The position numbers were made by a program, and so were the translations under genes. Under the pieces are notes generated by a model. That model was not told where the DNA came from, did not search any database, and saw only the letters and a list, made by a program, of their open reading frames with translations. A stretch of DNA of 64,000 nt from Terriglobus albidus (GTDB lineage Bacteria; Acidobacteriota; Terriglobia; Terriglobales; Acidobacteriaceae). Every line of letters begins with the position of its first letter. Within the stretch, counting starts at the first letter, position 1. This document shows positions 5,428 to 52,000 of this stretch, piece by piece. The DNA is taken from the NCBI RefSeq assembly GCF_025685425.1, contig NZ_JAGTAS010000052.1, positions 62,001 through 126,000 of the forward strand, read 5' to 3'.

Positions 5428-5531
5428 CATTTTCCCAGTTCCTGAATATCCGGAAAGGACATGCAGCGGCGTTTTCTTTGCGGAAAACACCCATAGATGC
5501 GGAAGCCTACACTACCTCACAAGGAAAATCC
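5428..5531 (+). repeat. Dispersed 108-bp palindromic element, copy A
   Basis: Diverged copy of the family described at 39695-40032. It starts GCATTTTCCC, carries the internal hairpin GGCGTTTTC/GGAAAACAC (one mismatch), and ends AGGAAAATCC. It begins one base after the bcsC stop codon (5533-5535 on the minus strand) and fills the gap between bcsC and the DUF3857 gene. Confidence 0.8.
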
Positions 5532-5532
5532 T

Positions 5533-8500
5533 CTACGGCACACGTAACGGGCGGAAACCGTCGTACGGGAACAGACCCGTCGGGTAGTCTTCTGTCGGCA
5601 CCTGCGGCTTGAACAGGTAGCGGAAGAAGAAGCCGGCCGTAATGGTGTTGTAGTTGTTCGTATTGTTGCCGTTCAGAATGCCGCCGACGTACCAGTGATC
5701 GGCGATGCGGTAACTCATCTCAGAGTTCAAAGAGTAGTTCAGCCCGGTGCTGGTGTTGACCGGATACTCTCCGCAGGTATGCGCCGCAATGGAGGGCAGC
5801 GTGCAACCCGAGAACGCCCCGGTCTGCAGTGACGTATCCAGGGGATAGTACTTGGCGTAGGCTTCCTGGAAGCTTTGCACGCCCACAGCACCGGCGATCG
5901 TATAGTGCCAGTTCGTGCCGTAGAAACCATTGAAGGTGACAGGCATGGCGCCGAGGAAGTACGCGTTCGGGCTGAAGTATCCGCCCATGCCGTAGGTCAT
6001 GCCGCGCTGGTTGTTGTCATAGTGCATGCCGAAGAAGCTGGCGCCGAGATTCAAAGAGCCATAGCCCGGGAACTGCTTCACCCGCCAGTAGGAACCGACG
6101 GTGCCTTCGAACTTCCGGTTATCCAGGACATGAAATCCGGTCAGAGAGGCCCCTGCCGCACTGACGTAGAAGCCTGCACGCTCATTGCCGAAGTCGAGAC
6201 GCAGACCGCCTCCGGTGGAGACGACGCCGCCCCAGATGTTGCCCGCGAAGACCGGTGTGGCAGAGCCCGGATCGCGCATACCGGAGTAGGACAGCTGTGT
6301 GTCTTTCACGTTGTCGCGATCGGCGAACAACAGGAAGTGGCCACCGAAGGGACGCCAGCGCCCATGGCCGATGACATTGGTTACGAGGAACTCGTAGGGG
6401 GTGAAGCCAACCGACACCGCCATATTGGTGGTTACCAGTTGCGCCTCGCCACCGAGGCCGGCCGTAAGCTGCTGCGACGGCTGATTGATGGCGTTCAAAG
6501 GAAGTGTGCCCAGAATCGGCACCGTGCCGCTGGCGTTCTGGTACGACGCAAGATCGAGCGAGCCCGCATTCAGGAAGACAGCCCGTGGAATGATGCTGAG
6601 CCGCAGTGTCTTATTCGCGACCAGCGTCGCCTCGAAGGGCGATTCCAGATCGAACAGCCGGTTCATACCCGAGATGCCGCTGCGATAACGGGCAAGAGCC
6701 GTCGCGCCGATCCATGAGGAATAGCTTGCCTCCAGAGAAGCCAGGTCCAGTTCGGCCTGCTGCCGCTCGCTGAGAGGAGGTCCCGGAGTCAGAGCCGCAG
6801 TGCGATCCCAACTGCCACGCAACGGCGGAACGTTCTTTGCCAACAGCATGGGATCCGTTGGAGGATTTTGCAGCGGGTAGCTTGGTCCCAGATCAGGATA
6901 GGGTTGACCGCTCAGCGCGACAGGGACGCCAGGATAAAAGAGTGGAGCCTGCTGCGGTCCGGTGGAGGTTCCCTCGACAGAACGGCTGCGTACCGTCCGG
7001 CGCCCGGTCGTAGCCGGACGACGTACTGGCTGCGGATACTGCTGTCCGTAGCTCTCTGTCCCGGTAGCCGCACCGGCGTTCTGCGCCAGGCCGCCACGAT
7101 ACTGATAGTTCTGCTGCGTCTGAGGAGCCTGAACCGCCGAACCCGTGCCGCCCTGCGGCTGCGGAATCTGCGTCTGCGCGGCGTTGTACGGCTGACCGTT
7201 GTACTGCGTCTGGGTCAGGGGAGCAACATCGATCGGGTCCTGCGGAGGATGGCTCGTACCAACCAACGGTCTCGGGTCGGACTGTCTGCGACGGGTGGCG
7301 GCGGCTTCGGCTGCCGCGATGTCCGGATGAGAGGATGACGACGGCAAACGGCCAGTGCGCCTGGAGTTCGGCACATACTTCGCCGTCGGAACAACGTCTG
7401 TCGGCTGCTGCATCTTCGGCTGGATGGGCTGGAGATCCGATCCCAGATCCACCGGGGCCGCCTGCGCCATATAGGCGGCATTCTGGTTTACGCTTTGCGG
7501 GTTGAACGGAACGTAGGGACCGTAAACTTCACCGCGAGCCTGCTGCTGAGCTGGAGGGCCATAAGCGGAGAGAGGACCTGCGCCATTGACTGCCTGCTCT
7601 GTCAACCGCCGGATCTGCTCCCGCTGATATGCCATGTAGTCATTGGCATTGACGGCATTGCCGTTGGTGTCCGTCTGCGGGAAGGCCGGCAAAGCGCTCT
7701 GAGCGGTGGCCTCGGGCTGTTGCTGGCCGAACGGAGCAAGCGCCGGATTCGCCTCCGCCTGCGGAATGTAATCCTTTAGCCGCGTCGTCGTTCCCGGACG
7801 AGCCGGCGTGCGCTGCTGCTGGTAGGCCGGATTCGTCATATACGACGGCACCAGAGTGCCATTCGGAGGAGCGCCGTTTCCCTGTAGCTGTACCGGCGCA
7901 GTCCCGTACTGATTCGAGTAGCTGGGAAGATAAGGCGGAGGCGCCGGAGCTGCGATCTGTCCCGTCACCATGGCTGCATCTGATCCCGGAGCCATCAACT
8001 GTGCCAGATCCATAGCCTGCGTCGCATTGGGCAGACGGCCGCCATTCTGGGCTGCGAGGCTCATCTCGGCAGCGAGCTCAGCACCTGGATCTCCCGGAGG
8101 CATCGCATTGAGACTTGCTTTGTAGTAGTCCGCCGCACGTTCGCTGTCTCCGCGAGCCTGCTCGAACTTCGCCGCAAGGATCAGCATTTGCGCATCCTTC
8201 GGATACTGATCGAGGCCATAACGCAGCCACGTCTCGGCATTCTTGGTATCGTTCGCCGCCAGGGCAGCCCCGATGGCGGCCTTGTAATCGGTCGCCGACG
8301 CCGTCGTCATGTCCTGCGAACGGAAGATAGCAACTGCCTGTTTCGGCTGACCGGCACGCGCATAGCCCGTTGCCAACGCGCGAATTACAGCCGGATTATC
8401 GGGAAAAGCCTTCGCCGCGGCGTTCAGAATCGCCAGCGCACGGCGAATGTTATTGGCCGCCACAGCCTGATTGGCGCGGCGTACTGCCCAATTCGCCCAG

Positions 8501-10854
8501 ATGGTCTGCACTGTACGGCGCTGTTCTTCATTCAGGTCATTGCGGCTGCCAATCATCATTAACTGGCGATAGAGACCGGAATCGTTCTGGGAGTTATAGA
8601 GCAGCCAGGCGTCCTGGATATCGATATCCGCGGGAGGCGCCATATTCTGCCTGGCATAGTGTTGCTGCACGCGCTGCAGAAAGACCATCGCCTGCTGCGG
8701 CTGCCCCAGTCCCCCGTAGATACCGCCTACGGTCTGCAGATACTCCGGATCCAGTTCGAGCTGCTTGCGTGTCTGCTGCGGAATCTGCTGTACCTGCGCC
8801 AGGGCTTCCTGGTCATGGCCACTGGCATGAAGTGCCGTCAACAAACCCTTCCAGCTATCGAGCCGGTCAGGGTTCTCCGTCAGAACCTGGCGATAGATGG
8901 CATACGCCTGCTGGGCGTTGCCGCGCTTCATGTAGATGCCTGCGAGTTCCGTCTGCATGGCGACCGATGGCTTCTGCCCGGCCATACTTGCCTGCGAGAC
9001 GGCCTTCTCCAGCATGTCCTGCGCAATATCGAGCTTGTTCTGTGCATCGTAAACCGCAGCTACCGTGCTGACGAAACCAGGATCGCGAAGTGCCTGATCA
9101 TACGCGGAGGGGGGCATACTCTCCAGCGTCTGCTCGGCAAGCGCATCATTCTTCATGGCATGCTCAACGCGCACCAGCCCCTGCCAGGCGGCAACATTCG
9201 CAGCATCTTCACTCAACACCTGGCGATAGAGCCCGGCGGCCTGATCCATGTGATTGCCGGCCAACAGAAGGCCGGCGTACTGCAGCTGGGTCTCGATTTT
9301 GATACCACGCCCATCAGCGGGAAAAGGGAGCTCAAGGGCTCCCTTCAACACTCGCTGTGCATCTGCGTCTCGACCTACGGCCGAGTAGGCCGAGGCCAAC
9401 GTTCGCAGGAAGTCCGGGTCTTTCATGAGCTGAGCTCGCACCCCCGCCGGCATCTTCCGTTCTGTTGCCAGTGCAAGAGCTGCATTCCCTGCCTGATATT
9501 GAGCCGTAAACAAGCCTCTCCAGCCGGTAATGCCGCTGGCCCTCAGCTTGATGTACTGCTCGTAGTACGGAGCCGCGGCTTCAGGCTGCTGCGCCTTCAT
9601 CAAGGTTCCAGCCAGACCTTCGAGTGCTTCCGGGCTGCCGGGCTTCATGTCCAGCGCCGCACGGAAGTGCTTTTCGGCGGTTGTCAGATCGCTCTCATTC
9701 AGGGCTGAGGTTCCCTCGCCCATCGTGTACCAGAACCGCGAGGTCGACAGCGCATTTTCCAGACCGGCATCGCGCGCTCCGTCCTGCTTGGCCTGCTCCA
9801 GGAAGCTGATCGCTCCACCGAAGTTCGACTGCTGCATGCGGATATAACCCATGCCGGCCAGCGCACGCGGATTATCCGGATTCTTTGCCAGCAGCGCCTT
9901 GAAGCGCTCTTCCGCGTCTGTCAGCCGTTTTCCATTCAGTGCAGCATAGGCGGCCTGCTCTTCCTGGCTTACCTGGCGATTCGCAACGATCTCCGCCTGC
10001 TGTTCCGGAGTCATCGCCGGCCCCTGTGCTGCGGTACGAGCTCCAGTCCGGACCGATGCAGCAACGCGAGCCTGCGTGCTCTTCATCGCCGTCTCAAGGG
10101 CGGGATCCTTGTGCTTTGCGAGATAAGCGCGGATGTCGGAAAGAGCTGCCGGATTCTGCGCATCCCAGGTCAGCGACTGGCGCAGCGCTTCCATGGCTCC
10201 CGGATCATTCGGGTGACGCTCCAGATACCGCCGGCCTTCGGCGCGGGTAGCCGGGTTGTAGGTCAGGATGCGTCCCAGAGCGATCTGATAGCGCGAATCC
10301 TGCGGATACTTATCAATGAGAGAACGAAGACCGGCGATGGCGTGAGGGCGACCGTCTTCGGTTGCCGATTCGGTCTCGTAATAGGCCAGCGCCCAATCGC
10401 CCGGAGGCGGCGTTCCACCAAAGACCTGGCGATAGATGTTCATCGCCTGCGCATACTGTCCGGCCTGCGCCAACTTGCCAGCCTGCTGCAACTGCTGCAG
10501 CTGGTTCTGCTGGGTCATCATGTTCTCGGCACGCTCAATATTCGGATCGTTCGGGCTAACCGCCCGCAGGCGATCCAGGTACTGCTTTGCCTGCTGCTGA
10601 TTTCCCGCAAGCTTGGCAGCACGAGCCAATCCGCCCAGCGCCTCAGGATTATTGGGATCAGCCAGCAGCACCTGCTGCCAGGTCTGAGCCGCCATATCCA
10701 TGCGTCCCTTTACTTCAAGAGAGTGCGCCTTATCCAGCAGAGCTGCCGTCGTCGACGCATTTCCCTGCGCCCAGGACATGGCAGGCGTGCCCATCATGCC
10801 CGCATATAGCGCCAGGCTGGCCGTGAGCATTCGCATTGGTGGCAGATTCTTCAT
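5533..10854 (-). CDS. bcsC: Cellulose synthase operon protein C (TPR periplasmic scaffold plus outer-membrane barrel)
   Basis: BcsC guides the nascent cellulose chain through the periplasm and across the outer membrane. The 1773-residue protein (ATG at 10854; a TTG lies four codons upstream) has a signal peptide, about 935 residues of TPR repeats (30-965), a Pro/Gln/Ala-rich low-complexity segment (about 965-1355) and a C-terminal beta-barrel domain (about 1370-1773, WRPFGG, FFFRYLF) typical of the family. E. coli BcsC is about 1150 residues, so both the TPR tract and the linker are enlarged. It is the last gene of the bcs operon, 140 bp after bcsZ. Confidence 0.95.
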   Translation of the reverse strand: MKNLPPMRMLTASLALYAGMMGTPAMSWAQGNASTTAALLDKAHSLEVKGRMDMAAQTWQQVLLADPNNPEALGGLARAAKLAGNQQQAKQYLDRLRAVSPNDPNIERAENMMTQQNQLQQLQQAGKLAQAGQYAQAMNIYRQVFGGTPPPGDWALAYYETESATEDGRPHAIAGLRSLIDKYPQDSRYQIALGRILTYNPATRAEGRRYLERHPNDPGAMEALRQSLTWDAQNPAALSDIRAYLAKHKDPALETAMKSTQARVAASVRTGARTAAQGPAMTPEQQAEIVANRQVSQEEQAAYAALNGKRLTDAEERFKALLAKNPDNPRALAGMGYIRMQQSNFGGAISFLEQAKQDGARDAGLENALSTSRFWYTMGEGTSALNESDLTTAEKHFRAALDMKPGSPEALEGLAGTLMKAQQPEAAAPYYEQYIKLRASGITGWRGLFTAQYQAGNAALALATERKMPAGVRAQLMKDPDFLRTLASAYSAVGRDADAQRVLKGALELPFPADGRGIKIETQLQYAGLLLAGNHMDQAAGLYRQVLSEDAANVAAWQGLVRVEHAMKNDALAEQTLESMPPSAYDQALRDPGFVSTVAAVYDAQNKLDIAQDMLEKAVSQASMAGQKPSVAMQTELAGIYMKRGNAQQAYAIYRQVLTENPDRLDSWKGLLTALHASGHDQEALAQVQQIPQQTRKQLELDPEYLQTVGGIYGGLGQPQQAMVFLQRVQQHYARQNMAPPADIDIQDAWLLYNSQNDSGLYRQLMMIGSRNDLNEEQRRTVQTIWANWAVRRANQAVAANNIRRALAILNAAAKAFPDNPAVIRALATGYARAGQPKQAVAIFRSQDMTTASATDYKAAIGAALAANDTKNAETWLRYGLDQYPKDAQMLILAAKFEQARGDSERAADYYKASLNAMPPGDPGAELAAEMSLAAQNGGRLPNATQAMDLAQLMAPGSDAAMVTGQIAAPAPPPYLPSYSNQYGTAPVQLQGNGAPPNGTLVPSYMTNPAYQQQRTPARPGTTTRLKDYIPQAEANPALAPFGQQQPEATAQSALPAFPQTDTNGNAVNANDYMAYQREQIRRLTEQAVNGAGPLSAYGPPAQQQARGEVYGPYVPFNPQSVNQNAAYMAQAAPVDLGSDLQPIQPKMQQPTDVVPTAKYVPNSRRTGRLPSSSSHPDIAAAEAAATRRRQSDPRPLVGTSHPPQDPIDVAPLTQTQYNGQPYNAAQTQIPQPQGGTGSAVQAPQTQQNYQYRGGLAQNAGAATGTESYGQQYPQPVRRPATTGRRTVRSRSVEGTSTGPQQAPLFYPGVPVALSGQPYPDLGPSYPLQNPPTDPMLLAKNVPPLRGSWDRTAALTPGPPLSERQQAELDLASLEASYSSWIGATALARYRSGISGMNRLFDLESPFEATLVANKTLRLSIIPRAVFLNAGSLDLASYQNASGTVPILGTLPLNAINQPSQQLTAGLGGEAQLVTTNMAVSVGFTPYEFLVTNVIGHGRWRPFGGHFLLFADRDNVKDTQLSYSGMRDPGSATPVFAGNIWGGVVSTGGGLRLDFGNERAGFYVSAAGASLTGFHVLDNRKFEGTVGSYWRVKQFPGYGSLNLGASFFGMHYDNNQRGMTYGMGGYFSPNAYFLGAMPVTFNGFYGTNWHYTIAGAVGVQSFQEAYAKYYPLDTSLQTGAFSGCTLPSIAAHTCGEYPVNTSTGLNYSLNSEMSYRIADHWYVGGILNGNNTNNYNTITAGFFFRYLFKPQVPTEDYPTGLFPYDGFRPLRVP

Positions 10855-10994
10855 TCCTACTCGCAAATCCTTAGGCGGCGAGGGGGTATCTAGAGAGACA
10901 CCGCGTCGCAGCTTAGCTTACCGCTTTTCTTAGGGTTTTGTCCCTGTTTTTTTCCGCTATTAACTGCGGAATCACTAGTTTACGGCGTGAGTTG

Positions 10995-12170
10995 TTACTT
11001 CCACTTCAGCTTCAATCGTCCTTCTTTGTCAATACGAAACCGCTGTTCCTGCCAACCGGTGGCAAACATCGCCAGGTTCTGGTCGTAATAATCACCATTC
11101 CTGCCATAGAGTCCCGTCGATGGATCCTTCAGAGCCGCCAGACGATCCATCTGCGTCTTGGCCTGTTGTTTCAATCCCATCATCTGCAGATAGGGAGCAA
11201 GCGCCGCCGAAAAACCGACCGGGCCATCCGCGTTCAGCACCTTACCTTCTGAGTCCACCTGCAGCGGCGGAGCCAGGTTGGCACGCATATAGTTCGTCAT
11301 GCCGCCGAGCGGCGCCGCCAGCTCCCGAAGTCCCGGTGTTCCCGGATCGCTGATTCCGAGCCACAGATAGACGCGAATAGCGTCATAGCTCCCTACCGGG
11401 ACACCTTCATTCTTCCCAGTGGCCAACTGCGCGGGAGTCAAGGAAGGACGTACCCCACCTGGACCGGCCAGAACCCAGTCCATGACAAAGCCGCCACCAC
11501 TTCCCTGAGCCAGCAACTGAGGCATCGCGTCCAGAACCGTCGACCACGGTCCCTGAGGGTTTTCCTTCGCCAGACGCACAAGGACGAAGGGCGGCAAATA
11601 GCTGGGGTTCAAAATGTAGGTGGTTGGTTCGGGATGAAATCCCTGTGGGCCCGGAAGGATTGTCGTTCCCAGCCCCGGCGCCAGAACGACTTCACTCTGC
11701 GCGATGCGGCCGGCCATGACAGTCCCCAGCTTGGCGTAACGATCGTCGCGCCAGATGCGTCCGGCTTCCAGAAGCGTATAGGCCATCCAGAGATCGGCAT
11801 CTGACGCCGCGTGATCATCCAGCACCTTCCATTGACCTTCAGGAGACTTGCCCCAATTCCAGGCAGGCAGACGCAACGTCATGTCGCCGCCCGCAAGGTT
11901 CTCCTCTGTCCACTTCAGCAGCTTGTCAAACCGGCCGCGATCGCCGGCAACCAGAGCGAAGAACATGGCATAGGCCTGTCCTTCGCTGGTGGTCCGATCC
12001 TGCGCCGTACGATCGATGACACGTCCCTGCGGGTCAACGAACTTCGCGGCGTACTTCTCCCACAGGTCCCAGGGCTGTTCCGCCCGGCACCCCTGGCCGA
12101 GCCAGGCCACAAGGGTCACCAGCAGCGCAACACATGCACTCGCGCTTACCCGTTTTTTGCTGCTCCGCAT
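10995..12170 (-). CDS. bcsZ: Endo-beta-1,4-glucanase, glycoside hydrolase family 8
   Basis: Periplasmic cellulase of the cellulose synthase operon, thought to trim or edit the emerging glucan. The 391-residue protein has a signal peptide (ACVALLVTLVAWLGQG) and GH8 signatures: the general acid Glu63 in TTSEGQAYAMF and the Asp-rich motif ASDADLWMAYTLLEAGR (Asp124/Asp126). Tyr- and Trp-rich (alpha/alpha)6 barrel segments continue to residue 340. The ATG at 12170 is 12 bases after the bcsAB stop; a GTG directly before it is possible. Position between bcsAB and bcsC is the standard operon place. Confidence 0.94.
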   Translation of the reverse strand: MRSSKKRVSASACVALLVTLVAWLGQGCRAEQPWDLWEKYAAKFVDPQGRVIDRTAQDRTTSEGQAYAMFFALVAGDRGRFDKLLKWTEENLAGGDMTLRLPAWNWGKSPEGQWKVLDDHAASDADLWMAYTLLEAGRIWRDDRYAKLGTVMAGRIAQSEVVLAPGLGTTILPGPQGFHPEPTTYILNPSYLPPFVLVRLAKENPQGPWSTVLDAMPQLLAQGSGGGFVMDWVLAGPGGVRPSLTPAQLATGKNEGVPVGSYDAIRVYLWLGISDPGTPGLRELAAPLGGMTNYMRANLAPPLQVDSEGKVLNADGPVGFSAALAPYLQMMGLKQQAKTQMDRLAALKDPSTGLYGRNGDYYDQNLAMFATGWQEQRFRIDKEGRLKLKWK

Positions 12171-12182
12171 CACCGGCTCTCT

Positions 12183-18835: not shown

Positions 18836-18928
18836 AACTGCTCCTTGAGCCTCATGTGTCGTAAACCGGCCAGCCAATCCTGCCCGGAAAAGACACACTT
18901 TTCCGCAATTGTTCGATCTAATGCCCTG

Positions 18929-18957
18929 AGCGTACTGAGCTTAAGAACCCAAGTCAA
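18929..18957 (-). promoter_or_regulatory. Candidate sigma-70 promoter of the cellulose operon
   Basis: On the minus strand TTGACT is followed after exactly 17 bases by TACGCT. It lies about 95 bases upstream of the bcsQ start and no competing box of equal quality is seen. Inferred from sequence only. Confidence 0.4.
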
Positions 18958-19006
18958 TCACCAGCGGATGCTACTTAAGTGTCAGAAACCACGCATTTTG
19001 AGCCTC

Positions 19007-19025
19007 ATGGAAAGAGTCTTTCCAT
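19007..19025. repeat. Perfect 8-bp inverted repeat upstream of tRNA-Lys
   Basis: ATGGAAAG-AGT-CTTTCCAT lies between the bcs promoter candidate and the tRNA. It could be an operator for either divergent unit or a small terminator-like hairpin; no T-run follows. Confidence 0.35.
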
Positions 19026-19077
19026 AGGGCTGGGTCACCCTGAACATGCCTCATTTGTGCTACCTTGAAGAAAGTGC

Positions 19078-19153
19078 GAGAGCGTAGCTCAGTTGGTAGA
19101 GCATCGCCCTTTTAAGGCGCTGGTCCTGGGTTCGAGCCCCAGCGCTCTCACCA
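19078..19153 (+). tRNA. tRNA-Lys (anticodon TTT)
   Basis: A 76-base cloverleaf with encoded CCA. The acceptor stem GAGAGCG pairs with CGCTCTC, the D arm GCTC-AGTTGGTA-GAGC is standard, the anticodon loop is CTTTTAA (anticodon TTT, lysine), and the T arm is CTGGG-TTCGAGC-CCCAG. The outermost anticodon-stem pair is a T-C mismatch. It stands alone, divergent from the bcs operon. Confidence 0.97.
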
Positions 19154-20648: not shown

Positions 20649-20691
20649 AGCATTCCTCTTGCCGGTCACCATTAGAGCTGCAGGGCGGAGT

Positions 20692-22161: not shown

Positions 22162-22206
22162 CGTCTCTCCTTCTCCTCATCATCATCGCATCCCGGTCAC
22201 AATCCA

Positions 22207-23312: not shown

Positions 23313-23927
23313 ATGTCTGTTCTGTTACTCGATGCGTTCGCCATCACCGCGGCCCAGGATCTTCAGACCAAAAACTGGCATCTGCCCGAGCCTTCGCGCA
23401 CCACGCCGGCGGACCCTTTCGACGGCCTGCTCAGTCAGCTCCATCGAGCCAACTTTGACCTGTGGCACGAGGAAGACAGGGCCCGTGATCCCAACGCCAG
23501 TTCTGATCAGATTGCGATTACCAAACGAGCAATCGACATTTTGAACCAGCGCCGCAACGATGTTGTCGAACAGCTCGACCGCGCACTACTTGCTGCGCTG
23601 GCGCCACTCTCGTTACCCAACGCGGACGCGGCGCTGCACTCAGAGACGCCGGGGCTGATCCTTGACCGGCTCTCTATCCTTGCGCTCAAGATCTTCCATA
23701 CTCAGGAGCAGATTGACCGCACCGACATTACCGAAGAGCATCGCTCCAGGAACCAGGCCCGCCTGGCGATGCTCACGGAACAACGCAACGATCTCGCGGG
23801 CTGCCTGGATGCTCTTTGGAGCGATATCACAACCGGTAGACGCCGCTTCAAACTCTACCGGCAGTTGAAGATGTACAACGATCCGACACTGAATCCTGTG
23901 CTCTATGCCCGCAGAAGCGTCTCGTGA
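23313..23927 (+). CDS. DUF4254 family protein
   Basis: The 204-residue protein is read from the ATG at 23313 (MSVLLLDAFAIT); an upstream frame extension has no support. It is mostly helical with LHRANFDLWHEEDRARDP and IDILNQRRNDVVEQLD, features I associate with DUF4254, a family of unknown function often seen beside GT9-type glycosyltransferases. Soluble, no signal peptide. It is divergent from the GT9 gene, so a role linked to LPS sugar assembly is possible but unproven. Confidence 0.75.
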   Translation: MSVLLLDAFAITAAQDLQTKNWHLPEPSRTTPADPFDGLLSQLHRANFDLWHEEDRARDPNASSDQIAITKRAIDILNQRRNDVVEQLDRALLAALAPLSLPNADAALHSETPGLILDRLSILALKIFHTQEQIDRTDITEEHRSRNQARLAMLTEQRNDLAGCLDALWSDITTGRRRFKLYRQLKMYNDPTLNPVLYARRSVS

Positions 23928-23942
23928 CAAGTTTGGCGTTTC

Positions 23943-27119: not shown

Positions 27120-27147
27120 TCGATCTCTTCTCCCCGCAGACGCTTGA

Positions 27148-27255
27148 GCATTTTCCCTGTTGCCGGGTATTCCGGAAGGGGCGTGAAGCGGCGTTTTCAT
27201 TGCGGAAAACGCCCATAGATCCGGAAGCCCTACACTACACCTGCAGGGAAAATGC
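27148..27255 (+). repeat. Dispersed 108-bp palindromic element, copy B
   Basis: Full-length copy: begins GCATTTTCCCTGTTGC, ends CTGCAGGGAAAATGC, with the internal hairpin GGCGTTTTC...GAAAACGCC intact. It occupies the gap between the DUF1080 stop and the ATP-grasp-like gene start. Confidence 0.9.
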
Positions 27256-27307
27256 TATCGCCCCGCACGAGGCGGGGCGATGCTGGCGCCTTGATGGCTA
27301 GCTTAGG

Positions 27308-31005: not shown

Positions 31006-32814
31006 ATGCCTCCGATTCTGAATGCACGCACCATCAGCAAGGCCTTTGGGGCCTCGCCGCTCTTTCGCGATATCTCGCTCACCATCTCGGACGGCGACCG
31101 CATCGGCCTGATCGGCCCTAATGGCGCCGGCAAGTCGACATTGCTCTCGATCCTTGGCGGCCAGCAGGAGCCGGACTCAGGCGAAGTTGCAAGCCGCAAG
31201 CGCGCCCGTGTCGCCTATGTGGCTCAGGACTCGGAGTTTGCCTCTGGACGCACCGTTCGTCAGGTGCTGGAAGATGCCCTCGCCAAGGCTCACGTCCCGG
31301 AGGACGAACGCGACGGCCGCCTGCACGAAACCGTGGGCCGCGCAGGATTCCCATCGTTCGATTCGGAGGCCGCTTCCCTATCCGGAGGCTGGCGCAAGCG
31401 CCTTGCCATCTCCGAGGCCACCATCACGCGTCCTGACGTGCTGATGCTGGACGAACCGACGAATCATCTTGACCTGGAAGGCATCGAGTGGCTGGAAGAG
31501 CTACTGCAGCAGGCGCCTTATGCCGTCGTGACCATCTCGCACGATCGCTACTTCCTGGAAAACGTCGCCACCGACATCATCGAGCTGAACCGCATCTACG
31601 CTGAAGGATTGCTGCGCGTCCGTGGATCGTACTCGCGTTTTCTGGAAGAGAAGCAGAGCTATCTCGCCTCCCAGTCGCGGGAGCAGGAGGCGCTTCGGAA
31701 CCGCGTCCGCACGGAGATTGACTGGCTGCGCCGCGGCCCGAAGGCACGCACCACCAAGAGCAAAGCGCGCATCGATAAGGCAAACGAGCTGATCGGGCAA
31801 CTCGCGGACGTAAACTCGCGCACCAATACCCGCACGACCGATATTGATTTCACCGCCTCCGACCGCAAGACCAAGCGGCTGATTGAACTGGAGAATCTCG
31901 GCTACGAGATCGACGGCAAGACCATCTTCCGCGATCTGAGCTTCACCTTCACCGCCGGTACCCGCGTGGGGCTGGTCGGCCCTAATGGCAGCGGCAAGAC
32001 CACCCTGTTGCGTCTGCTGCGGAACGAAATCCAGCCGACCTCCGGCGCCATCAAGCGGGCCGAATTTCTGCGCACGGTTTACTTCTCCCAGCTTCGTGAG
32101 ATCGATTCTTCCCTGACGCTGAAACAGGCGCTGACGCCGGACGGCGGAGACTCCGTCACCTTCAATGGCCGCCAGATCCATGTTGCGAGCTGGGCCAACC
32201 GCTTTCTCTTCACCGGCGAGCAGCTCAACCAGCCCGTGGATCGGCTTTCAGGCGGCGAGCGCGCTCGCGTGCTGATCGCGCGGCTGATGCTGCAACCGGC
32301 CGACCTGCTGCTTCTGGACGAGCCTACGAACGACCTCGACATTCCAACACTCGAGATTCTGGAAGAATCGCTGCTTGAGTTTCCTGGAGCCCTGGTTCTG
32401 GTCACTCACGACCGCTATCTGCTCGACCGCGTCTCCACGACCGTGCTCGGTCTGGACGGCGAGGGTGATGCGGCTCAATTTGCCGATTACAGCCAGTGGG
32501 AGGAGTGGAAGAGCCAAAAAGAGGAGCCCGGCAACGCCACCCCTGCCCGTGAAGAGAGCACAACGCCTGCCATCGAGGTCCGCGCGCAGAAGAAAAAGCT
32601 TTCCTACCTGGAAGCCCGGGAGTTCGCCACGATCGAGCAACGCGTGGAAGAGGCGGACGAACGGGTTGTCGCACTGAAAGCGAAGCTGGAAGACCCTGCC
32701 GTGGCCACAAACGCCGCCGAGTTACAGGCGACGTTGGCGGAGCTGGAGACGGCACAGACCGAAATGGAAACGCTCTATGCCCGCTGGGCGGAGTTGACCG
32801 AGAAGGCCGGCTGA
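31006..32814 (+). CDS. uup: ABC-F family ATPase, Uup type
   Basis: Translation-linked ABC-F protein with two ATPase cassettes and no membrane domain. Cassette 1: GPNGAGKST, LSGGWRKRLAI, DEPTNHLDLEGIEWLEELL; cassette 2: GPNGSGKTT, LSGGERARVLIARLM, DEPTNDLDIPTLEILE. The linker between them is Arg/Lys-rich and the last 75 residues (after about 525) form the Uup-type C-terminal coiled coil. The ATG at 31006 follows GGAG closely and matches the usual MPPILNA-type start; an ATG 13 codons upstream at 30967 has no ribosome site. 602 residues. Confidence 0.92.
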   Translation: MPPILNARTISKAFGASPLFRDISLTISDGDRIGLIGPNGAGKSTLLSILGGQQEPDSGEVASRKRARVAYVAQDSEFASGRTVRQVLEDALAKAHVPEDERDGRLHETVGRAGFPSFDSEAASLSGGWRKRLAISEATITRPDVLMLDEPTNHLDLEGIEWLEELLQQAPYAVVTISHDRYFLENVATDIIELNRIYAEGLLRVRGSYSRFLEEKQSYLASQSREQEALRNRVRTEIDWLRRGPKARTTKSKARIDKANELIGQLADVNSRTNTRTTDIDFTASDRKTKRLIELENLGYEIDGKTIFRDLSFTFTAGTRVGLVGPNGSGKTTLLRLLRNEIQPTSGAIKRAEFLRTVYFSQLREIDSSLTLKQALTPDGGDSVTFNGRQIHVASWANRFLFTGEQLNQPVDRLSGGERARVLIARLMLQPADLLLLDEPTNDLDIPTLEILEESLLEFPGALVLVTHDRYLLDRVSTTVLGLDGEGDAAQFADYSQWEEWKSQKEEPGNATPAREESTTPAIEVRAQKKKLSYLEAREFATIEQRVEEADERVVALKAKLEDPAVATNAAELQATLAELETAQTEMETLYARWAELTEKAG

Positions 32815-32836
32815 GCGGGTGGTATCCTCGAAACAA

Positions 32837-34578: not shown

Positions 34579-34610
34579 CCTGTTATTGGAACAGGATTTG
34601 AGCTTGTGGA

Positions 34611-35584: not shown

Positions 35585-36514
35585 TCAGGCGGGAAAGAGA
35601 AAGCGCAGCACATCGCCCAGGCGGGCGGCCCAGGCCTCCTCCGAATGGGTACCGGCCGGTTCCTCCACATATCGCAGGTGCTTTCCATCCCAACCCTTGC
35701 GGCGGAGCAAGGCGGCCATGGCTGCGGCATTGCGAACGTGGCGCCCGCCCTCGAGCAGGCCTATGTCCAACCAGATGCGCGGCTTAGGCTCAGGGTTGAG
35801 CCTCTCCACGTCGTCGAAGATGCTGCGGCGGGTCCACCACAACGAGGGAGACAACACGGCCAGGCGGCCAAAGATACCGGGGAAATGGAACCCCGTCCAG
35901 AGCGAGATAAGACCTCCAAGCGAGGATCCGCCGAGCCCGGTGTGTTCCGTTCCAGGAAGTGTTCGGTACCGGCTATCGACGAAGGGCTTTAGCTCCTCCA
36001 CGAGAAAGCGTGCGTAATTTTCCCCCTCTCCGCCACCTAATTGGGGATCGGAGGAGGGGGTGTACTCGGTAATGCGGCGAACTCCGGCATGAAAGATTCC
36101 GACCAGGATCAGCGATTCTATCTGGCCGGCGGCGGTTAACCGGTCGGCGGTGTCGTGCGCCCGCCAGGTCTGTCCGGGAACATGCGAGGTCCGCGGATCG
36201 ATCAGGTTCTGACCGTCATGGAGGTATAACGTGGCGAACCGCCGTTCCGGCTGTTCGAAGTACTGCGGCGGAAGATACACGAAGATCTCCCGGTCGCCAG
36301 GCAGGTGACGGGAGCGAAAGCCAGCGTAGCGGTGAAGACGCGGGGTGCGATCAAGTGCTGCGGTCTCTTCTCTGAACTGGTCCTCTGGCGGATACGGCGC
36401 GACGATAGTAAAACTCCCGGATAGAGCATTTCCCTGCAGGTGTAGTGTAGGGCTTCGGCATCCATGGGCGTTTTCCGCAATGAAAACGCCACTGCACTCC
36501 CCTTTCGGGGACAC
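35585..36514 (-). CDS. Alpha/beta-hydrolase esterase (PF00756 type)
   Basis: The enzyme core runs from about residue 60: REIFVYLPPQYF, TLYLHDGQNL, catalytic Ser198 in GLGGSSLGGL and His290 in EEPAGTHSEEAW. It resembles Fes/IroE-like and carbohydrate esterases. The only usable start I find in frame is a GTG at 36514, which lies inside repeat copy C, so the first roughly 30 residues are encoded by the repeat; no ATG, GTG or TTG occurs between the repeat and the core. No signal peptide is evident. Either the repeat supplies the start or the true start was lost. Confidence 0.8.
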   Translation of the reverse strand: MSPKGECSGVFIAENAHGCRSPTLHLQGNALSGSFTIVAPYPPEDQFREETAALDRTPRLHRYAGFRSRHLPGDREIFVYLPPQYFEQPERRFATLYLHDGQNLIDPRTSHVPGQTWRAHDTADRLTAAGQIESLILVGIFHAGVRRITEYTPSSDPQLGGGEGENYARFLVEELKPFVDSRYRTLPGTEHTGLGGSSLGGLISLWTGFHFPGIFGRLAVLSPSLWWTRRSIFDDVERLNPEPKPRIWLDIGLLEGGRHVRNAAAMAALLRRKGWDGKHLRYVEEPAGTHSEEAWAARLGDVLRFLFPA

Positions 36515-36531
36515 CCGGTAACAGGGAAAGC
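36426..36531 (-). repeat. Dispersed 108-bp palindromic element, copy C (inverted)
   Basis: The only copy in reverse orientation: it starts GCATTTCCCTGCAG, contains GGGCGTTTTC...GAAAACGCC, and ends CAGGGAAAGC. It covers the start region of the esterase gene on the minus strand. Confidence 0.88.
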
Positions 36532-36532
36532 G

Positions 36533-36844
36533 CGAGGGTGCGTCATCAAACTCGTGTCGTCAGCGCCGGGAGCAGATTTTTACGAGATCGAGGAGCGAGG
36601 AGAGAACTGTAGCTGGTCTACTGGAACGACGAGTGACGAAGAGATTGGGAAAATCTGCCCCGGCCCTTGGGTTGCGGCGCAAATTCGCCCATACTTCGTT
36701 GTCAGCCTCGACTGTGGACCCGCCACAGCCTTCGGCCTCCGCCTCGTATGAACAAATTTGCGCTCGCAACGCTGACGGCAGGAGTTTGAGGACGCACCCT
36801 GGGGTTAGGATGGCTTCAGCCTAGCAGAGCGGGGAGGGGCCCTC
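36533..36844. other. 312-base intergenic region with nested inverted repeats
   Basis: Separates divergent esterase genes. Three pairings are seen: GCAGATTTT (36572) with AAAATCTGC (36650); GTTGCG-GCGCAAATT (36671-36685) with AATTTGCGC-CGCAAC (36755-36770); and CTGTGG-ACCCG-CCACAG (36712-36728). No open frame with coding character. Could be a structured RNA or a decayed mobile element. Confidence 0.45.
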
Positions 36845-37555: not shown

Positions 37556-37638
37556 GGGGAATAAACCTGAAAAATTTCGCTGTGCGTTTCTGATTTGCCT
37601 TACCGAAGAGTGCGTATCATCGTTCAACGAATATATCC

Positions 37639-39669: not shown

Positions 39670-39694
39670 TGCGGGCACGATCATCAGCAATAGA

Positions 39695-40032
39695 GCATTT
39701 TTCCTGTTACTGGTTATCCCGGAAGAGGAGTGCAACGGCGTTTTCATTGCGGAAAACGCCCATAGATGTGGAATCCCTACACTACACCTACAGGAAAAAT
39801 GCTTTAATCGCATTTTCCCTGTTGCTGGGTATCCCGGAAGAGGAGTGCAACGGCGTTTTCATTGCGGAAAACGCCCATAGATGTGGAATCCCTACACTAC
39901 ACCTACAGGAAAAATGCTTTAATCGCATTTTCCCTGTTGCTGGGTATCTCGGAAGAGGAGTGCAACGGCGTTTTCATTGCGGAAAACGCCCATAGATGTG
40001 GAATCCCTACACTACACCTACGGGAAAAATGC
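39695..40032 (+). repeat. Triple tandem array of the 108-bp palindromic element (copies D, E, F)
   Basis: Copies at 39695-39802, 39810-39917 and 39925-40032, period 115 bp, joined by the 7-base spacer TTTAATC. They are almost identical. Each begins GCATTTT(T/C)CCTGTT, has the perfect hairpin GGCGTTTTC-ATTGCG-GAAAACGCC, then CATAGATGTGG...CTACACTACACCTAC, and ends GGAAAAATGC. The outer edges of the array extend the inverted ends to TAGAGCATTTTTCC and GGGAAAAATGCTCTA. Confidence 0.97.
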
Positions 40033-40816
40033 TCTAGCTTTCCTACTTCTTGCCGCAACTGTGCTACCGGCAGAGACAGCGCGTGTAGCTCTACACAATG
40101 CCCTGGCGCACACGCAGGCCTCTGCTGTCGTGCTGGATGCGGTCTCCGGAAAGATACTCGCGCAGGAAGGGATGCCGAGACGCGGCACTCCGGGTTCCAG
40201 CATCAAGCCGTTTGTGTTGGATTATGCCCTGCAGCACGGGCTCGTACAGCCACAGACCCAGGTGTATTGCCGCCGCGATCTGCATATCGGCGGACGCAGC
40301 GTGTCGTGCACGCATCCGGCGGATGAACCACTCTTCGATGCGGAGAATGCTCTGGCTGAGTCCTGCAATATCTGGTTTGCGGCGCTGGCGCAGCGTATGC
40401 CGGCCGGCGATGTCGAACAGGCTGTTGCTGCTACGGCACTGCCACATGAGAACTTGGCCGGCGCGACTGTGGATCAGCGGCAACTCGCCGTCCTCGGGCT
40501 TTGGGGAAGCACGGCGTCGCAGCTGGAACTTGCCCGGGCCTATCGTGCCCTGCTTCAGAGATTGCCTCAGGGGGGCGTTGTGGAACGCGGGCTGCAAGCG
40601 TCGGTGGAGCGAGGCATGGCGAATCCGGCAGCGACCAGAGGAATGACTATTCTGGGTAAAACAGGTACCGCTCGCAATCCGGGCGAAAGCTGGACACATG
40701 GATGGTTCGCCGGCTCGGTTCCCGGACGCTGGATCGTCGTCATCTACATCCCGAAAGGTGATGGCGGCACGGCAGCGAGGTTGGCCCACCGGTTCTTCGA
40801 GGAGATGGCACGTTGA
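39998..40816 (+). CDS. Stand-alone penicillin-binding transpeptidase domain protein
   Basis: A small (272 residues) exported serine transpeptidase with all three motifs: SSIK (SxxK, in PGSSIKPF), SCN (SxN, in ALAESCNIW) and KTG (ILGKTGTARN). The signal-like segment ALAFLLLAATVLPAETA starts right at the edge of repeat copy F, and the first start codons available (GTG 39998; TTG 39977) lie inside the repeat. It is translationally coupled by a TTGA overlap to the SpoIID-peptidase gene. Role: peptidoglycan cross-linking or carboxypeptidase activity, or a beta-lactam sensor/hydrolase; class D beta-lactamases share the motifs. Confidence 0.85.
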   Translation: MESLHYTYGKNALAFLLLAATVLPAETARVALHNALAHTQASAVVLDAVSGKILAQEGMPRRGTPGSSIKPFVLDYALQHGLVQPQTQVYCRRDLHIGGRSVSCTHPADEPLFDAENALAESCNIWFAALAQRMPAGDVEQAVAATALPHENLAGATVDQRQLAVLGLWGSTASQLELARAYRALLQRLPQGGVVERGLQASVERGMANPAATRGMTILGKTGTARNPGESWTHGWFAGSVPGRWIVVIYIPKGDGGTAARLAHRFFEEMAR

Positions 40817-42486: not shown

Positions 42487-43180
42487 GTCTGCGCCAGGAT
42501 CGCCAGCACTAGAGAGATCACTGCGCCATCGAGGATCACGACAAAGCCGAGGCGTGCCAGCAGACTGAAGAGCTCCACACTGAGACCATGACCCGGCTTC
42601 CAATCCATCATCTTGCCGGTTACGGTTGTCGCCAGCACGCATAACAACACCAGGCCGACCCACCAGGTGAGACTGGCGAGAGTGCGGAGTACAGCGCGCG
42701 GGCGGCCGATGGTCACTGCATAACTGACGGCAGCCAGAAGGCCGGCGGCGATCCAGGTCAACAAGGTCCACAACCACCCGAGCCACTGGTAGATGTGGTT
42801 ATAGGTAAAGAAGCTTCGCAGACCGTGCGGGAAGCGCGAGTTCAGATAGCTGGCTCGCTGGGGGTCGCCCGCGTGCAGCGACGTGATCCATTGAGAAAGC
42901 AGGCACCCCAGCAGCACAGCAACGATGATGGAGGCGGCCCCGAGCAACAAGCGTCTGCGCGTGCGTTCTTTGCGCGCCAGCCAGAGTGCGATCCACGACT
43001 GTCCGCCGGTAGCAATGGCCACAACCAGAATGCCGAGAATCAAGGAGACTGCCACCTGCAGCACGCTGGCATCCGGCAGGCGCAACCATAACGTTGCCAG
43101 CAGACAGACTGTGACACCCAGGGCGATCTGGAGCAGGAGCAGCTTCAGGGTGAAGCGACGCAGCGCGCCGCGCAACAGGC

Positions 43181-43184
<4 letters not shown>
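42426..43184 (-). CDS. Polytopic membrane protein of the alpha-2-macroglobulin operon
   Basis: A 252-residue protein with about six hydrophobic segments (for example LLLLQIALGVTVCLLATLWL, VAVSLILGILVVAIATGG, LVLLCVLATTVTG, VVILDGAVISLVLAILAQ) and a charged loop RKERTRRR. No family recognised. The start overlaps the alpha-2-macroglobulin stop (ATGA), making it the third gene of that operon. It might anchor or assist the macroglobulin. The 3' end overlaps the SpoIID gene tail to tail. Confidence 0.75.
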
Positions 43185-48903
<5,719 letters not shown>

Positions 48904-48931
48904 TCAGGGCCGACAGGGTTTGATGAGCGAG

Positions 48932-51790
48932 TTAGAAACTAATTCGGGCTGCGAGCTGAATACTGCGCGGATCCCCTACTCCATTGGCTCCACCAAAGGT
49001 GGTGCTGGGCGTCGTGGGATAGGCTCCCGTCCCCCAGGTTCCATTGGGCAGCATGTCGTTGCGATGGTTCAGAACGTTGAACGCCTCCGCCATTCCCTCC
49101 AGATGGACGCGGTCGGTAAGAGCGATGGTGCGGCTGAGCCGGGCGTTGATGCCGAAGAAGTCGAATCCGATGCCGGTATTCCGGCCAATCACTGCCCCGG
49201 CAAGTCCCTCTGTGCACGGGTTCGTTGTTGCCAGAGAGTATCCGGCGGTGCAGGGACGCTGCGTTGTCTGCTGCTTCGTCTGTCCGCCGGTCACGATGTT
49301 GAACGGCAGCCGTGAGTAGTACTGCAGTACTCCGCCGAGCTGCCATCCGTGCGTGAGGTGCCCCGTGACCGTGCTGGTATGGGACGTCGGCGAGTGCGCA
49401 CTCAGATCGAAGATCAGGCGATGTCGCTGATCGTCATCCGAACGTCCGCGATCGACATTGAGATCGAAGTTATTAATCGGCGAGGAGAAAAAGAACTCGC
49501 TGATATTGTTGATGGCCTTCGACCAGGTATACGAGACCCGCGCCGATCCCCACGAGACTGGCCTCTGCACCAGCGAGACCGCCAAGCCGTCGTAATACGA
49601 ATCAAACAACGAATCGTAGTAGCGAACATTGCCACGGGAGTTGTCTGGCCGCGTGCCATCGAGATTGATGTTGCGGTTGATGGAAGAGAGCAGATGCAGG
49701 CCATGCGTGTGCTGGTAGCTAAGTCCCAGGGTTGTTGCGCCGGCCAATTGCTGCTCTATGCCGAGGCTCAGCTGTTGCGCGTAGGCATTCTGAATTCCCG
49801 AACGCATCAGCGTATAGCTGATCTTCGCCGCGGGGTTTGGCGTGGTGGAGACGTTCGGGAACGATGGTGCGCCGACATCGCCTGGAACATAGGTGTATTG
49901 CAGCAGGCGGCCCCGCGCAGGATCCTGCGTGTTGTTAGCCGACAGCAGCGCATTCGCCAGCGCGCGTAACGGAATGCGGTCATAGAACAGGCCGTAACTG
50001 CCGCGCACCACGGTACGACGATCGGCAAACGGCGACCATGCGAAACCGACGCGAGGAGAAAGGTTATTCGCATCGGTACTCACGGTCGATAGAAACTGCA
50101 GGTCGTACCGCAGACCAGCGTTGACGGTCAGCGATGGAAGCGCCTTCCATTCGTCCTGCACATAGAAGCCGACGTTGGGGTTGTTCTGGGTAATATGTGG
50201 CGTGCCGAAGTTCTGAGCGTAGCTGGAGTATCCAGTAGTGCTGGACAGAAAGGACGCCAACGAGGGAAAAGTGTAGTTTCCCGCAATCGACATGGGGAAC
50301 ATAATGGTGTCGCGGTTGAAAAGAAAGTCCATGCCGGTCTTCACCGTATGGGCTCCGCGCTGCATTACCAGATTGTCGACCAGCTCATACAAGTAGTTCA
50401 GGCGAGCAGCGGGCGAAGAAGAAAACCGCCCGAAGCTCGCGATGCCGCTGATCGTGATCGCAGGACTGTTCTGCGTATTCGACGGAGCGTCCAGGCTGTC
50501 ATAGGTGAACTGGCCACGGGTTTCGTTGAAGGTGCGCGGTGAAAGCGTCGCGATATTACTCGCTGCAACCGTGCGATTGATGTCGCGCACAGCGGTTCCA
50601 TAGCTGACGTCCGCCAATGCGCCTGCACCGCGTGCATTGACACTGTTCAGCCGGTAGTAGCTGTAACGCAATGTAAGTTGATCTTTGTCGCTGAAGCGAT
50701 GGTCGCCGCGCAGGAAGAGATTGTCGGAGTGCACTGTCGTCGGGTAGAGGGTCGTCGCGCCGGTTCCTACAGACAGACGAGGTCCGGTGAAGCCGAGAGT
50801 ATTCAAACGGTTGTTGATCGCCGTGGCGTTCGCGGGTGAGATGGTCACGATGCCGTTCGTGTTCAAGCGTCGTCCTTCGTAGTTACCGAAGAGAAAGCTG
50901 CGGTCGCGCCGCAGCGGTCCGCCAAGGCTGGCGCCGTACAGCCCCTGCGTCAGCGGCAGCGTGGTGCGCGACAGTGGATTTTGCGCGTTAAACCGCTGAT
51001 TCCGCAGAAACCCATAGGCCGTGCCATGCAGGTCATTGGCGCCGCTGCGCGTGACGATATTGAAGTAGCCGCCCATGGCCCGGCCGAACTCAGCCTGGCC
51101 ACCCGAGGTGACCACCTGGAACTCTCGCACCACATCCATGCCGTAGGAGTTACCCGCAAGCCCGGCGGCATCGTCGTTGGCTGAAAGGCCATCCACCACA
51201 AAGCTGTTGGAGAAGTTCCGCTGGCTGTTGATGGAGTACCCCTGGCCGATGACCGGGGAGGTTTCGGCGAAAGTCTGCGTGCTATTGGTATTGGTGGGGC
51301 TTACTCCTGGCGCCAGAAGCGCGAGATCAAGGTAGTTGCGGCCGTTGTACGGCAGCTCCGTCACTTCGGCCTGATGTACGGTCTCGGAGATCTGGCTGCG
51401 GTTGGCTTCGAGCGGCAGCGCCGTTCCGTCGACGACCTCCACAGTGACATTTTGCCCGGCAAGCGATACCTGCAGTACGAGATCAAGAGCCGCCCCAACA
51501 CCGAGCTGCACTTTCATACTGGTCGCTCGAAATTCGCGAGGCTGGGTGGCAAAGACATACTCCCCAACCGGAAGAAAGGGGAGACGGAAGCGGCCTCGCT
51601 CATCGGTCATGGTGGTGTAGTTCTGATTGGTTGCAACGGAACGAGCAGTGACAGGAGCTTGAGCAATAAGCGCGCCTGAGGGATCAAGGACGCGGCCGGT
51701 AACGGAGGCGCTGGTCAGCGTCTCCTGCGCATAGATGGCTGAGGTGGCAAAGAGGGACAGGGCGACAAGGGCCGCTCTCCGGGTAAACAT
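48932..51790 (-). CDS. TonB-dependent receptor-like outer-membrane protein with carboxypeptidase-regulatory domain
   Basis: The start is the ATG with GGAGGAAAGC directly upstream (MFTRRAALVALSLFATSAIYAQ), giving 952 residues; the longer frame into repeat copy G is discarded. After the signal peptide come a CarboxypepD_reg-like domain (about 28-105: VTGRVLDPSGALIAQAPV), a plug domain (about 125-260: ELPYNGRNYLDLALLAPGVS) and a 22-strand-type barrel ending in SIQLAARISF, with the C-terminal Phe. This is the Oar-like receptor type greatly expanded in Acidobacteriota. Ligand unknown; probably oligosaccharides or peptides. Confidence 0.92.
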   Translation of the reverse strand: MFTRRAALVALSLFATSAIYAQETLTSASVTGRVLDPSGALIAQAPVTARSVATNQNYTTMTDERGRFRLPFLPVGEYVFATQPREFRATSMKVQLGVGAALDLVLQVSLAGQNVTVEVVDGTALPLEANRSQISETVHQAEVTELPYNGRNYLDLALLAPGVSPTNTNSTQTFAETSPVIGQGYSINSQRNFSNSFVVDGLSANDDAAGLAGNSYGMDVVREFQVVTSGGQAEFGRAMGGYFNIVTRSGANDLHGTAYGFLRNQRFNAQNPLSRTTLPLTQGLYGASLGGPLRRDRSFLFGNYEGRRLNTNGIVTISPANATAINNRLNTLGFTGPRLSVGTGATTLYPTTVHSDNLFLRGDHRFSDKDQLTLRYSYYRLNSVNARGAGALADVSYGTAVRDINRTVAASNIATLSPRTFNETRGQFTYDSLDAPSNTQNSPAITISGIASFGRFSSSPAARLNYLYELVDNLVMQRGAHTVKTGMDFLFNRDTIMFPMSIAGNYTFPSLASFLSSTTGYSSYAQNFGTPHITQNNPNVGFYVQDEWKALPSLTVNAGLRYDLQFLSTVSTDANNLSPRVGFAWSPFADRRTVVRGSYGLFYDRIPLRALANALLSANNTQDPARGRLLQYTYVPGDVGAPSFPNVSTTPNPAAKISYTLMRSGIQNAYAQQLSLGIEQQLAGATTLGLSYQHTHGLHLLSSINRNINLDGTRPDNSRGNVRYYDSLFDSYYDGLAVSLVQRPVSWGSARVSYTWSKAINNISEFFFSSPINNFDLNVDRGRSDDDQRHRLIFDLSAHSPTSHTSTVTGHLTHGWQLGGVLQYYSRLPFNIVTGGQTKQQTTQRPCTAGYSLATTNPCTEGLAGAVIGRNTGIGFDFFGINARLSRTIALTDRVHLEGMAEAFNVLNHRNDMLPNGTWGTGAYPTTPSTTFGGANGVGDPRSIQLAARISF

Positions 51791-51893
51791 GCTTTCCTCC
51801 AAACGGATTAGGGCTGCCGCAGAGCGCGTCGTACAAAGACAGTAATACGCGCCATACAACGACAGCAGAGACGTTCTTGGACCGTTGGTTAAA

Positions 51894-52000
51894 GCATTTT
51901 CCTGTTGCTGGGTATCCCGGAAGAGGATTGCAGCGGCGTTTTCATTGCGGAAAACGCCCATAGATACCGAAGCCCTACTCTACACCTACAGGGAAAATGC
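51894..52000 (+). repeat. Dispersed 108-bp palindromic element, copy G
   Basis: Begins GCATTTTCCTGTTGCTGG and ends CTACAGGGAAAATGC with the internal hairpin GGCGTTTTC...GAAAACGCC intact. It lies between the receptor gene start and the stop codon of the small Cys/His protein, two bases from the latter. Confidence 0.9.

What the first reader, a model, noticed from the sequence alone, without database searches (positions are those of the whole stretch)
5428..52000. Seven-copy dispersed 108-bp palindromic element of unknown family
Copies at 5428, 27148, 36426 (inverted), 39695, 39810, 39925 and 51894 share inverted ends (GCATTTTCCCTG / CAGGGAAAATGC) and a perfect 9-bp internal hairpin (GGCGTTTTC / GAAAACGCC), with conserved blocks CATAGAT and CTACACTACACCTAC between. 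All are intergenic; copies A and G sit within two bases of a stop codon. Paired arms are kept while loops vary (copy A differs in one arm), which suggests selection or mobility of a folded DNA/RNA. It fits no element class I can name: larger than classic REPs, without an obvious target duplication.
Basis: seen in the sequence. Interest (0 to 1): 0.72.

Follow-up and report, generated by a model that had tools for sequence, protein, structure and literature searches.

The report
TA-inserting MITE family of Acidobacteriaceae
The repeated palindrome is a tiny jumping DNA element of about 112 bases without a gene of its own, present in some hundreds of copies in certain Acidobacteria genomes, that inserts at the two-letter target TA and can land exactly inside a stop codon while leaving a stop codon in place.

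Summary
The seven copies are real and far beyond chance. They belong to a dispersed family: 284 core matches in the window's own genome, 217, 204 and 188 in three congeners, 0 in the other 15 of 19 genus genomes held. A covariance model finds relatives in 61 of 300 genomes of the same family, 14 of 79 genera. The whole element is about 112 bp, GAGCATTTTCCCTG...CAGGGAAAATGCTC, flanked by TA. Best reading: a gene-less MITE, the kind of RUP, ERIC and Correia elements, moved by an unidentified TA-specific transposase. No Rfam family matches it, and no Y1 (RAYT) gene read is bracketed by it. Across seven genera the terminal and inner palindromes co-vary (19 of 26 pairs), but G-T and A-C mismatches are about equally common, which points to DNA rather than RNA. 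At 23 of 58 copies an end coincides with the stop codon of an ORF; TA plus the terminal G makes TAG, and 3 of 3 clean empty sites already had the stop there.

The parts
5423..5535 (+). copy A, degenerate copy; its right end holds the TAG stop of the minus-strand ORF 5533-10866; shared with G002
27144..27259 (+). copy B; site empty in G002, occupied in G015 (target duplication not readable at this site)
36422..36535 (-). copy C (inverted); site empty in G015, copy present in G002; abutted by a second, unrelated dispersed repeat (about 36537-36800)
39691..39806 (+). copy D, first unit of a tandem trimer; left TA
39806..39921 (+). copy E, middle unit; internal junction GCTTTA-ATC-GCATTTT
39921..40036 (+). 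copy F, last unit; right TA. The whole trimer is absent from G002, G012 and G015
51890..52004 (+). copy G; shared with G002; right end holds the stop (TGA) of a minus-strand ORF
37562..37566 (.). empty site: G002, G012 and G015 carry a copy here
48933..48936 (.). empty site with a single TA: G002 carries a copy here, inside the stop codon of a long ORF (TAA in the window, TAG in G002)
32814..32823 (.). empty site: G012 and G015 carry a copy here
23922..23930 (.). empty site: G015 carries a copy here

Best explanation
A non-autonomous miniature inverted-repeat transposable element (MITE). Shown: a gene-less unit of about 112 bp with 15-bp terminal inverted repeats sits between two TAs where the empty allele of a related species has one; it is present or absent at the same site in related species; most sampled copies lie between ORFs, and a good part exactly in stop codons, because TA followed by the element's terminal G reads TAG. 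Inferred: it is moved in trans by a TA-specific transposase (IS630/Tc1-mariner type is my first guess, from the TA duplication alone) that binds the terminal repeats and perhaps also the conserved inner palindrome GGCGTTTTC/GAAAACGCC; the paired changes in both arms would be the trace of that symmetric recognition at DNA level. Accumulation where insertion does little harm (gene 3' ends) would explain the distribution; no cellular function is needed.
For: Core matches 284/217/204/188, backward-pattern controls 0. Of 40 copies in the compared stretches of G000 and G002 (22 and 18), 13 sites are occupied in one and readable as empty in the other: 10 empty alleles hold a single TA at the junction (5 of these with both TAs intact in the filled allele), 1 reads TAGAGCTTTA, 2 show no clear TA. 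From, sites C and 32814 agree; at 23922 the G002 empty allele has the TA and the window does not. Terminal repeats recognisable in 123 unique full copies. 71 of 79 copies between ORFs. 25 of 116 ends (23 of 58 copies) coincide with an ORF's stop codon, while 10.4% of non-coding TAs lie in stop codons; in 3 of 3 clean empty sites of this kind the native stop is at that TA (given 9 of the 13 sites). Co-variation: 19 of 26 pairs and 75 cells, against shuffle means 8.1 and 14.7 and at most 7 and 16 in slid controls. G-T to A-C mismatches 26:28 (terminal) and 9:16 (inner), so no bias to G-U.
Against: No transposase gene bracketed by these ends was found among the PF13358, PF01609, PF13586 and PF01797 loci read. 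At the D-E-F site the empty alleles of G012 and G015 have no TA, unlike G002. The inner hairpin is more conserved than the rest of the element between orthologous resident copies (187/198 against 915/1075 positions, Fisher p=1.6e-4; 11 pairs, one G002 copy used twice), which plain neutral decay does not predict.
Confidence: 0.9

Rival explanations
1. REP/BIME-like repeat moved by a RAYT (Y1 tyrosine transposase).
For: Palindromic, dispersed, intergenic, sometimes clustered. Y1_Tnp genes occur in 11 of 13 genus genomes searched. Acidobacterial Y1 transposases flanked by long inverted repeats (TIRYTs) are in print (PMC3733652, section 16 read).
Against: TA duplication, whereas IS200/IS605-type Y1 enzymes make none (recalled). 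Y1 genes occur in genomes without the element too. Of 41 Y1 matches 32 were read with flanks: none is bracketed by the element; 6 have one copy nearby, against about 4 expected from its density in carriers. REPs are 20-40 bp (abstract of PMC3733652).
Confidence: 0.04
2. A structured RNA (small RNA or cis-regulatory RNA) spread over the genome.
For: Consensus folds better than shuffles: z -6.6 as DNA, -6.2 and -7.0 as RNA for the two strands; compensatory changes across genera.
Against: G-U and A-C mismatches about equally common; no Rfam family in the window or in 8 loci of other genera; RNAalifold on the cross-genus alignment keeps 9 pairs of the terminal stem only; copy A does not fold; presence/absence with TA duplication. 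Transcription was not testable.
Confidence: 0.05
3. A MITE whose inner palindrome has been taken up by the host as a DNA site (nucleoid, replication or termination protein), so that resident copies are kept by selection.
For: Inner hairpin arms 98% conserved among 80 copies (most were fetched by similarity, so biased) and slower to diverge than the rest of the element in orthologous copies; it co-varies across genera.
Against: About as many sites differ between G000 and G002 (13 sites) as are shared (7); 15 of 19 genus genomes lack this subfamily; transposase recognition plus recent spread, or gene conversion, can give the same conservation.
Confidence: 0.15

Closest known systems
RUP (repeat unit of pneumococcus)
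   Same: 107 bp, gene-less, terminal inverted repeats, TA target, 108-110 copies (passages of PMC2229807 and PMC3049150)
   Different: RUP has a proposed parent, IS630-Spn1; none was found here. This element has longer terminal repeats (15 bp against 9), an inner palindrome kept across genera and tandem arrays, and occurs in many genera of one family
ERIC / IRU
   Same: 127-bp repeat with TA at its ends and target duplication, spread through enterobacteria
   Different: other phylum; terminal repeat given as 7 contiguous bp. The sequences were not compared directly; the consensus has no match in 72,556 plasmid records
Correia / NEMIS elements
   Same: 107 or 155 bp, 24-bp terminal repeats, TA and target duplication; high copy number (recalled)
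   Different: other phylum; promoter, IHF and RNase III traits not tested here; sequences not compared directly
REP / BIME with RAYT
   Same: dispersed intergenic palindromes
   Different: size, TA duplication, no bracketed Y1 gene among those read

Membership tests
Bacterial MITE | under about 200 bp, no protein encoded | tested here: met
   about 112 bp
Bacterial MITE | terminal inverted repeats | tested here: met
   15 bp plus TA; 91.7% and 92.3% of cells paired
Bacterial MITE | target site duplication shown by empty sites | tested here: met
   TA; 10 of 13 sites;
Bacterial MITE | multi-copy and polymorphic in location | tested here: met
Bacterial MITE | parent element with matching ends | tested here: inconclusive
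   none found in the loci read of four transposase families in part of the carriers; many loci are cut by contig ends. PMC2229807 says such a match was not found or not sought for bacterial elements other than RUP
IS630/Tc1-mariner-derived MITE | TA duplication | tested here: met
   not specific to this family (recalled)
IS630/Tc1-mariner-derived MITE | ends match an IS630 of the genome | tested here: inconclusive
   the two near-identical DDE_3 copies of G002 have other ends; the other DDE_3 loci read (5 in all from the genus, 21 from 7 other-genus genomes) are not bracketed by the ends, but several are cut by contig ends
REP with RAYT | copies flank a Y1 transposase gene | tested here: not met
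   0 of the 32 matches read (of 41) bracketed
Rfam RNA families | match at gathering score | tested here: not met
   window; permissive search of the D-E-F region and of 8 loci of other genera

The most novel reading that the evidence does not exclude
A family-wide DNA element with a four-part architecture (terminal palindrome, TTGMTGGG box, inner palindrome, CTACACCTA box) whose terminal and inner palindromes both co-vary across at least seven genera, moved by a TA-specific transposase of unknown type that recognises an inner site or a folded strand, and which multiplies in place into tandem arrays through one stereotyped junction in which the left terminal GA is replaced by TC, ATC, GTC or ACC. 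If so, mobilisation here uses internal recognition and an in-place amplification step that I do not know of for TA-type MITEs.
Probability: 0.2. Interest if true: 0.72.

Novelty: new member of a known kind. Interest (0 to 1): 0.45.

Why it matters
It makes up a repeated-DNA layer in Acidobacteriaceae that I did not find described in the held open library. It explains seven intergenic palindromes of this window, gives an insertion marker for a little-studied group, and shows a neat way for a transposon to do little harm: a TA target plus a terminal G lets it sit inside a TAA or TAG stop codon and leave a stop in the same frame.

Tried and rejected
Candidate autonomous elements: two pairs of opposed ends about 1.0 and 1.9 kb apart (G000 C23, C28; chosen) proved to be pairs of ordinary copies around other genes. 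DDE_3, DDE_Tnp_1, DDE_Tnp_1_2 and Y1_Tnp loci: none bracketed by the ends; single copies or partial copies do lie near some of them (L088, L089, L094, L107, L121, L122, L284, L287, L295, L305, L315, L316, L319). Plasmid and phage collections: no match. Excision footprint: one orthologous site reads TAGAGCTTTA, but such palindromes are not in excess (1 in 742 kb; control palindromes mean 1.4). Extra helix GTGCAG/CTACAC: conserved, no clear co-variation. The RNAalifold consensus on A5 keeps only 9 pairs of the terminal stem and does not predict the inner hairpin; the counts are for the structure that I named. The G035 hit is only a hairpin of similar sequence.

Limits: the BLAST and CM genome searches score only part of the candidates per genome (12 or 9), so only the pattern counts are whole. 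The 40 other-genus regions were chosen by me from the places listed. A5 holds 49 copies from 21 genomes in 6 other genera plus 5 of the 7 window copies (E and F, array units, left out). All 49 are also found by a sequence-only profile, but they were first picked by a model with structure. My note gives 14 or more genera and 22 genomes for A5; that is wrong. In one search, of 158 hits 140 were full and 123 unique with flanks; A2 is a random 80 of 121 (2 much shortened ones dropped). In one search, 10 of 40 copies had no readable orthologous site. The sample counts some orthologous copies twice (copy A in both genomes, for one), and an insertion near a gene end could make a new stop, so the comparison is rough. 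The ORF distances partly reflect ORFs that end in the element. One of 13 arrays (L021) was mis-grouped by the script. Of the 84 or more stretches fetched only titles and positions were used.

Full report
What was checked. The seven copies exist as described. In the window's own genome (6.1 Mb, 58 contigs) a 32-base core pattern with up to 3 mismatches has 284 matches; three congeners have 217 (G002), 204 (G012) and 188 (G015), the other 15 of 19 genus genomes none, and the pattern read backwards none anywhere. BLAST with one copy finds it in 5 of 61 genomes, the own one included; the fifth, G035, has only a 57-base hairpin. A covariance model built from 80 copies (R1) has matches at E<=1e-4 in 61 of 300 genomes of the family, 14 of 79 genera, weak ones in two further genus genomes, G010 and G017, included; and at E<=1e-6 in 23 of 399 genomes of the class, all 23 being the own genome or labelled same genus or same family (how many of the 399 lie outside the family was not shown in full). 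The own genus is named by no call; Terriglobus is my guess from recall.

Ends and target. Aligned copies show ends TAGAGCATTTTCCCTG and CAGGGAAAATGCTCTA. Synteny with G002, G012 and G015 (about 87-92% identity over long blocks) gives filled and empty alleles. The clearest: G002 GCGCGT-TA-GAGCAT...ATGCTC-TA-GAAAC against the window's GCGAGT-TA-GAAAC at 48933; G000 GGG-TA-AAGC...GCTC-TA-AAGCTCACGG against G002 GGG-TA-AAGCTCACGG. Of 40 copies in G000 contig C56 (22) and the matching part of G002 (18), 7 sites are shared, 13 sites are occupied in one and readable as empty in the other, and 10 copies could not be placed. Of the 13, 10 empty alleles have a single TA at the junction (5 with both TAs intact in the filled allele), 1 reads TAGAGCTTTA, possibly a remnant, and 2 show no clear TA. 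Two more sites agree (C against G015; 32814 against G012 and G015); at 23922 the G002 empty allele has the TA but the window does not. The trimer D-E-F is absent as a whole from the three relatives; its empty site has a TA in G002 but not in G012 and G015.

Where it sits. In 742 kb of G000 and G002, 71 of 79 copies with enough flank lie between ORFs, with no preference for convergent, tandem or divergent gaps (12/49/10 against 96/345/102), median 23 bp from gene 3' ends and 115 bp from 5' ends (simple ORF caller, and part of the 3' distances come from ORFs that end in the element). At 25 of 116 ends, on 23 of 58 copies, a long ORF ends with a stop codon that begins at the flanking TA (or what replaces it), nearly always TAG made of TA plus the element's terminal G; 10.4% of non-coding TAs lie in stop codons (a rough comparison). 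Of 9 empty sites tested, 3 clean ones have such an end, and in all three the native stop is already at that TA in the same frame (TAA twice, TAG once); a fourth is the TAGAGCTTTA site. This explains why copies A and G touch stop codons.

Fold or not. Within the genus 93.7% of cells pair, but 21 of the 25 doubly changed cells belong to one pair (C-G or T-A), the number of such pairs is as in shuffles (4 against 3.4), and the inner hairpin shows none. Across 54 copies from seven genera, aligned without structure (A5), 19 of 26 pairs have changes on both sides (shuffles 8.1; slid controls at most 7) and 75 cells (14.7; at most 16): 13 of 17 pairs in the terminal stem and 6 of 9 in the inner hairpin. 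All 49 other-genus copies are also found by a sequence-only profile. Against this, RNAalifold keeps only part of the terminal stem, so the inner hairpin rests on the structure I named, and copy A does not fold. G-T and A-C mismatches are about equally frequent (26:28 and 9:16 on A5; 38:39 and 4:9 on A2). An RNA should tolerate G-U better than A-C, so the constraint looks like one on DNA: a DNA hairpin or, as simply, symmetric protein-binding sites. Rfam has no match.

Resident copies. In 11 orthologous pairs (one G002 copy used twice) the inner hairpin arms are identical at 187 of 198 positions against 915 of 1075 in the rest of the element (Fisher p=1.6e-4); flanks of 150 bp are 82% identical. 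This hints at constraint after insertion, but gene conversion or lower mutability is not excluded.

The mover. DDE_3 (IS630-type) genes occur in G000, G002 and G015, not in G012 and not in 6 non-carriers, and in 7 of 16 other-genus carriers; DDE_Tnp_1 in G002 and G012 of 4 carriers; DDE_Tnp_1_2 in 7 of 12; Y1_Tnp in 11 of 13, carriers and non-carriers alike. None of the loci read is bracketed by the element's ends; several are cut by contig ends. So the mover is unidentified, and IS630 is a guess from the TA.

Tandem arrays. Of 12 arrays grouped properly, 10 have the internal junction GCTYTA followed by ATC, GTC, ACC or TC and then GCATTTT (or a near variant), in place of GA; two, from G002 and G012, share one TA instead. 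In 9 of the 12 the units of an array are more alike than units of different loci (means over all 13: 0.93 against 0.88). Amplification in place through a defined junction, or spread of a dimer followed by homogenisation, would both fit; unexplained.

Verdict. A TA-inserting MITE family of the Acidobacteriaceae: a new member of a known kind, with a wide range and a co-varying inner palindrome. Papers: passages of PMC2229807, PMC3049150, PMC3733652 (section 16 whole), PMC6006769 and PMC8841776 (where the term is only in the reference list) were seen; of the others only search listings. No description of this element was found in the searches and 92 of the held open library, which lacks most subscription papers; the figure with the acidobacterial TIRYT repeats (PMC3733652, Figure 9) is not held, so those repeats were not compared letter by letter.

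Noticed in passing
window 36537-36800: A second dispersed repeat of about 265 bp (some copies about 305 bp) with ends AGGGTGCGTC...GACGCACCCT, with over thirty matches listed in G002, G012 and G015 together (a capped list), lying against copy C; in G002 one also sits inside a copy of the 112-bp element (L079).
   Followed up: partly
L131:13758 (G000 C56) against the copy of G002 at C1:4936741: Orthologous site where G002 has a copy and G000 reads TAGAGCTTTA, as if the element had been lost leaving both tips; such palindromes are not in excess in 742 kb.
   Followed up: yes
tandem arrays, e.g. window 39691-40036, L017, L019, L009: Internal array junctions replace the left terminal GA by ATC, GTC, ACC or TC in 10 of 12 separate arrays.
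   Followed up: partly
L082:12564-12679 (G002): A divergent copy inside the genus with a compensated inner hairpin (CCGTTTTC...GAAAACGG), suggesting a second subfamily.
   Followed up: no
L034:1517-1556 (G035): A lone hairpin CATGGGCGTTTT...AAAACGCCCATG in another genus, similar to the inner palindrome but without the terminal repeats.
   Followed up: no
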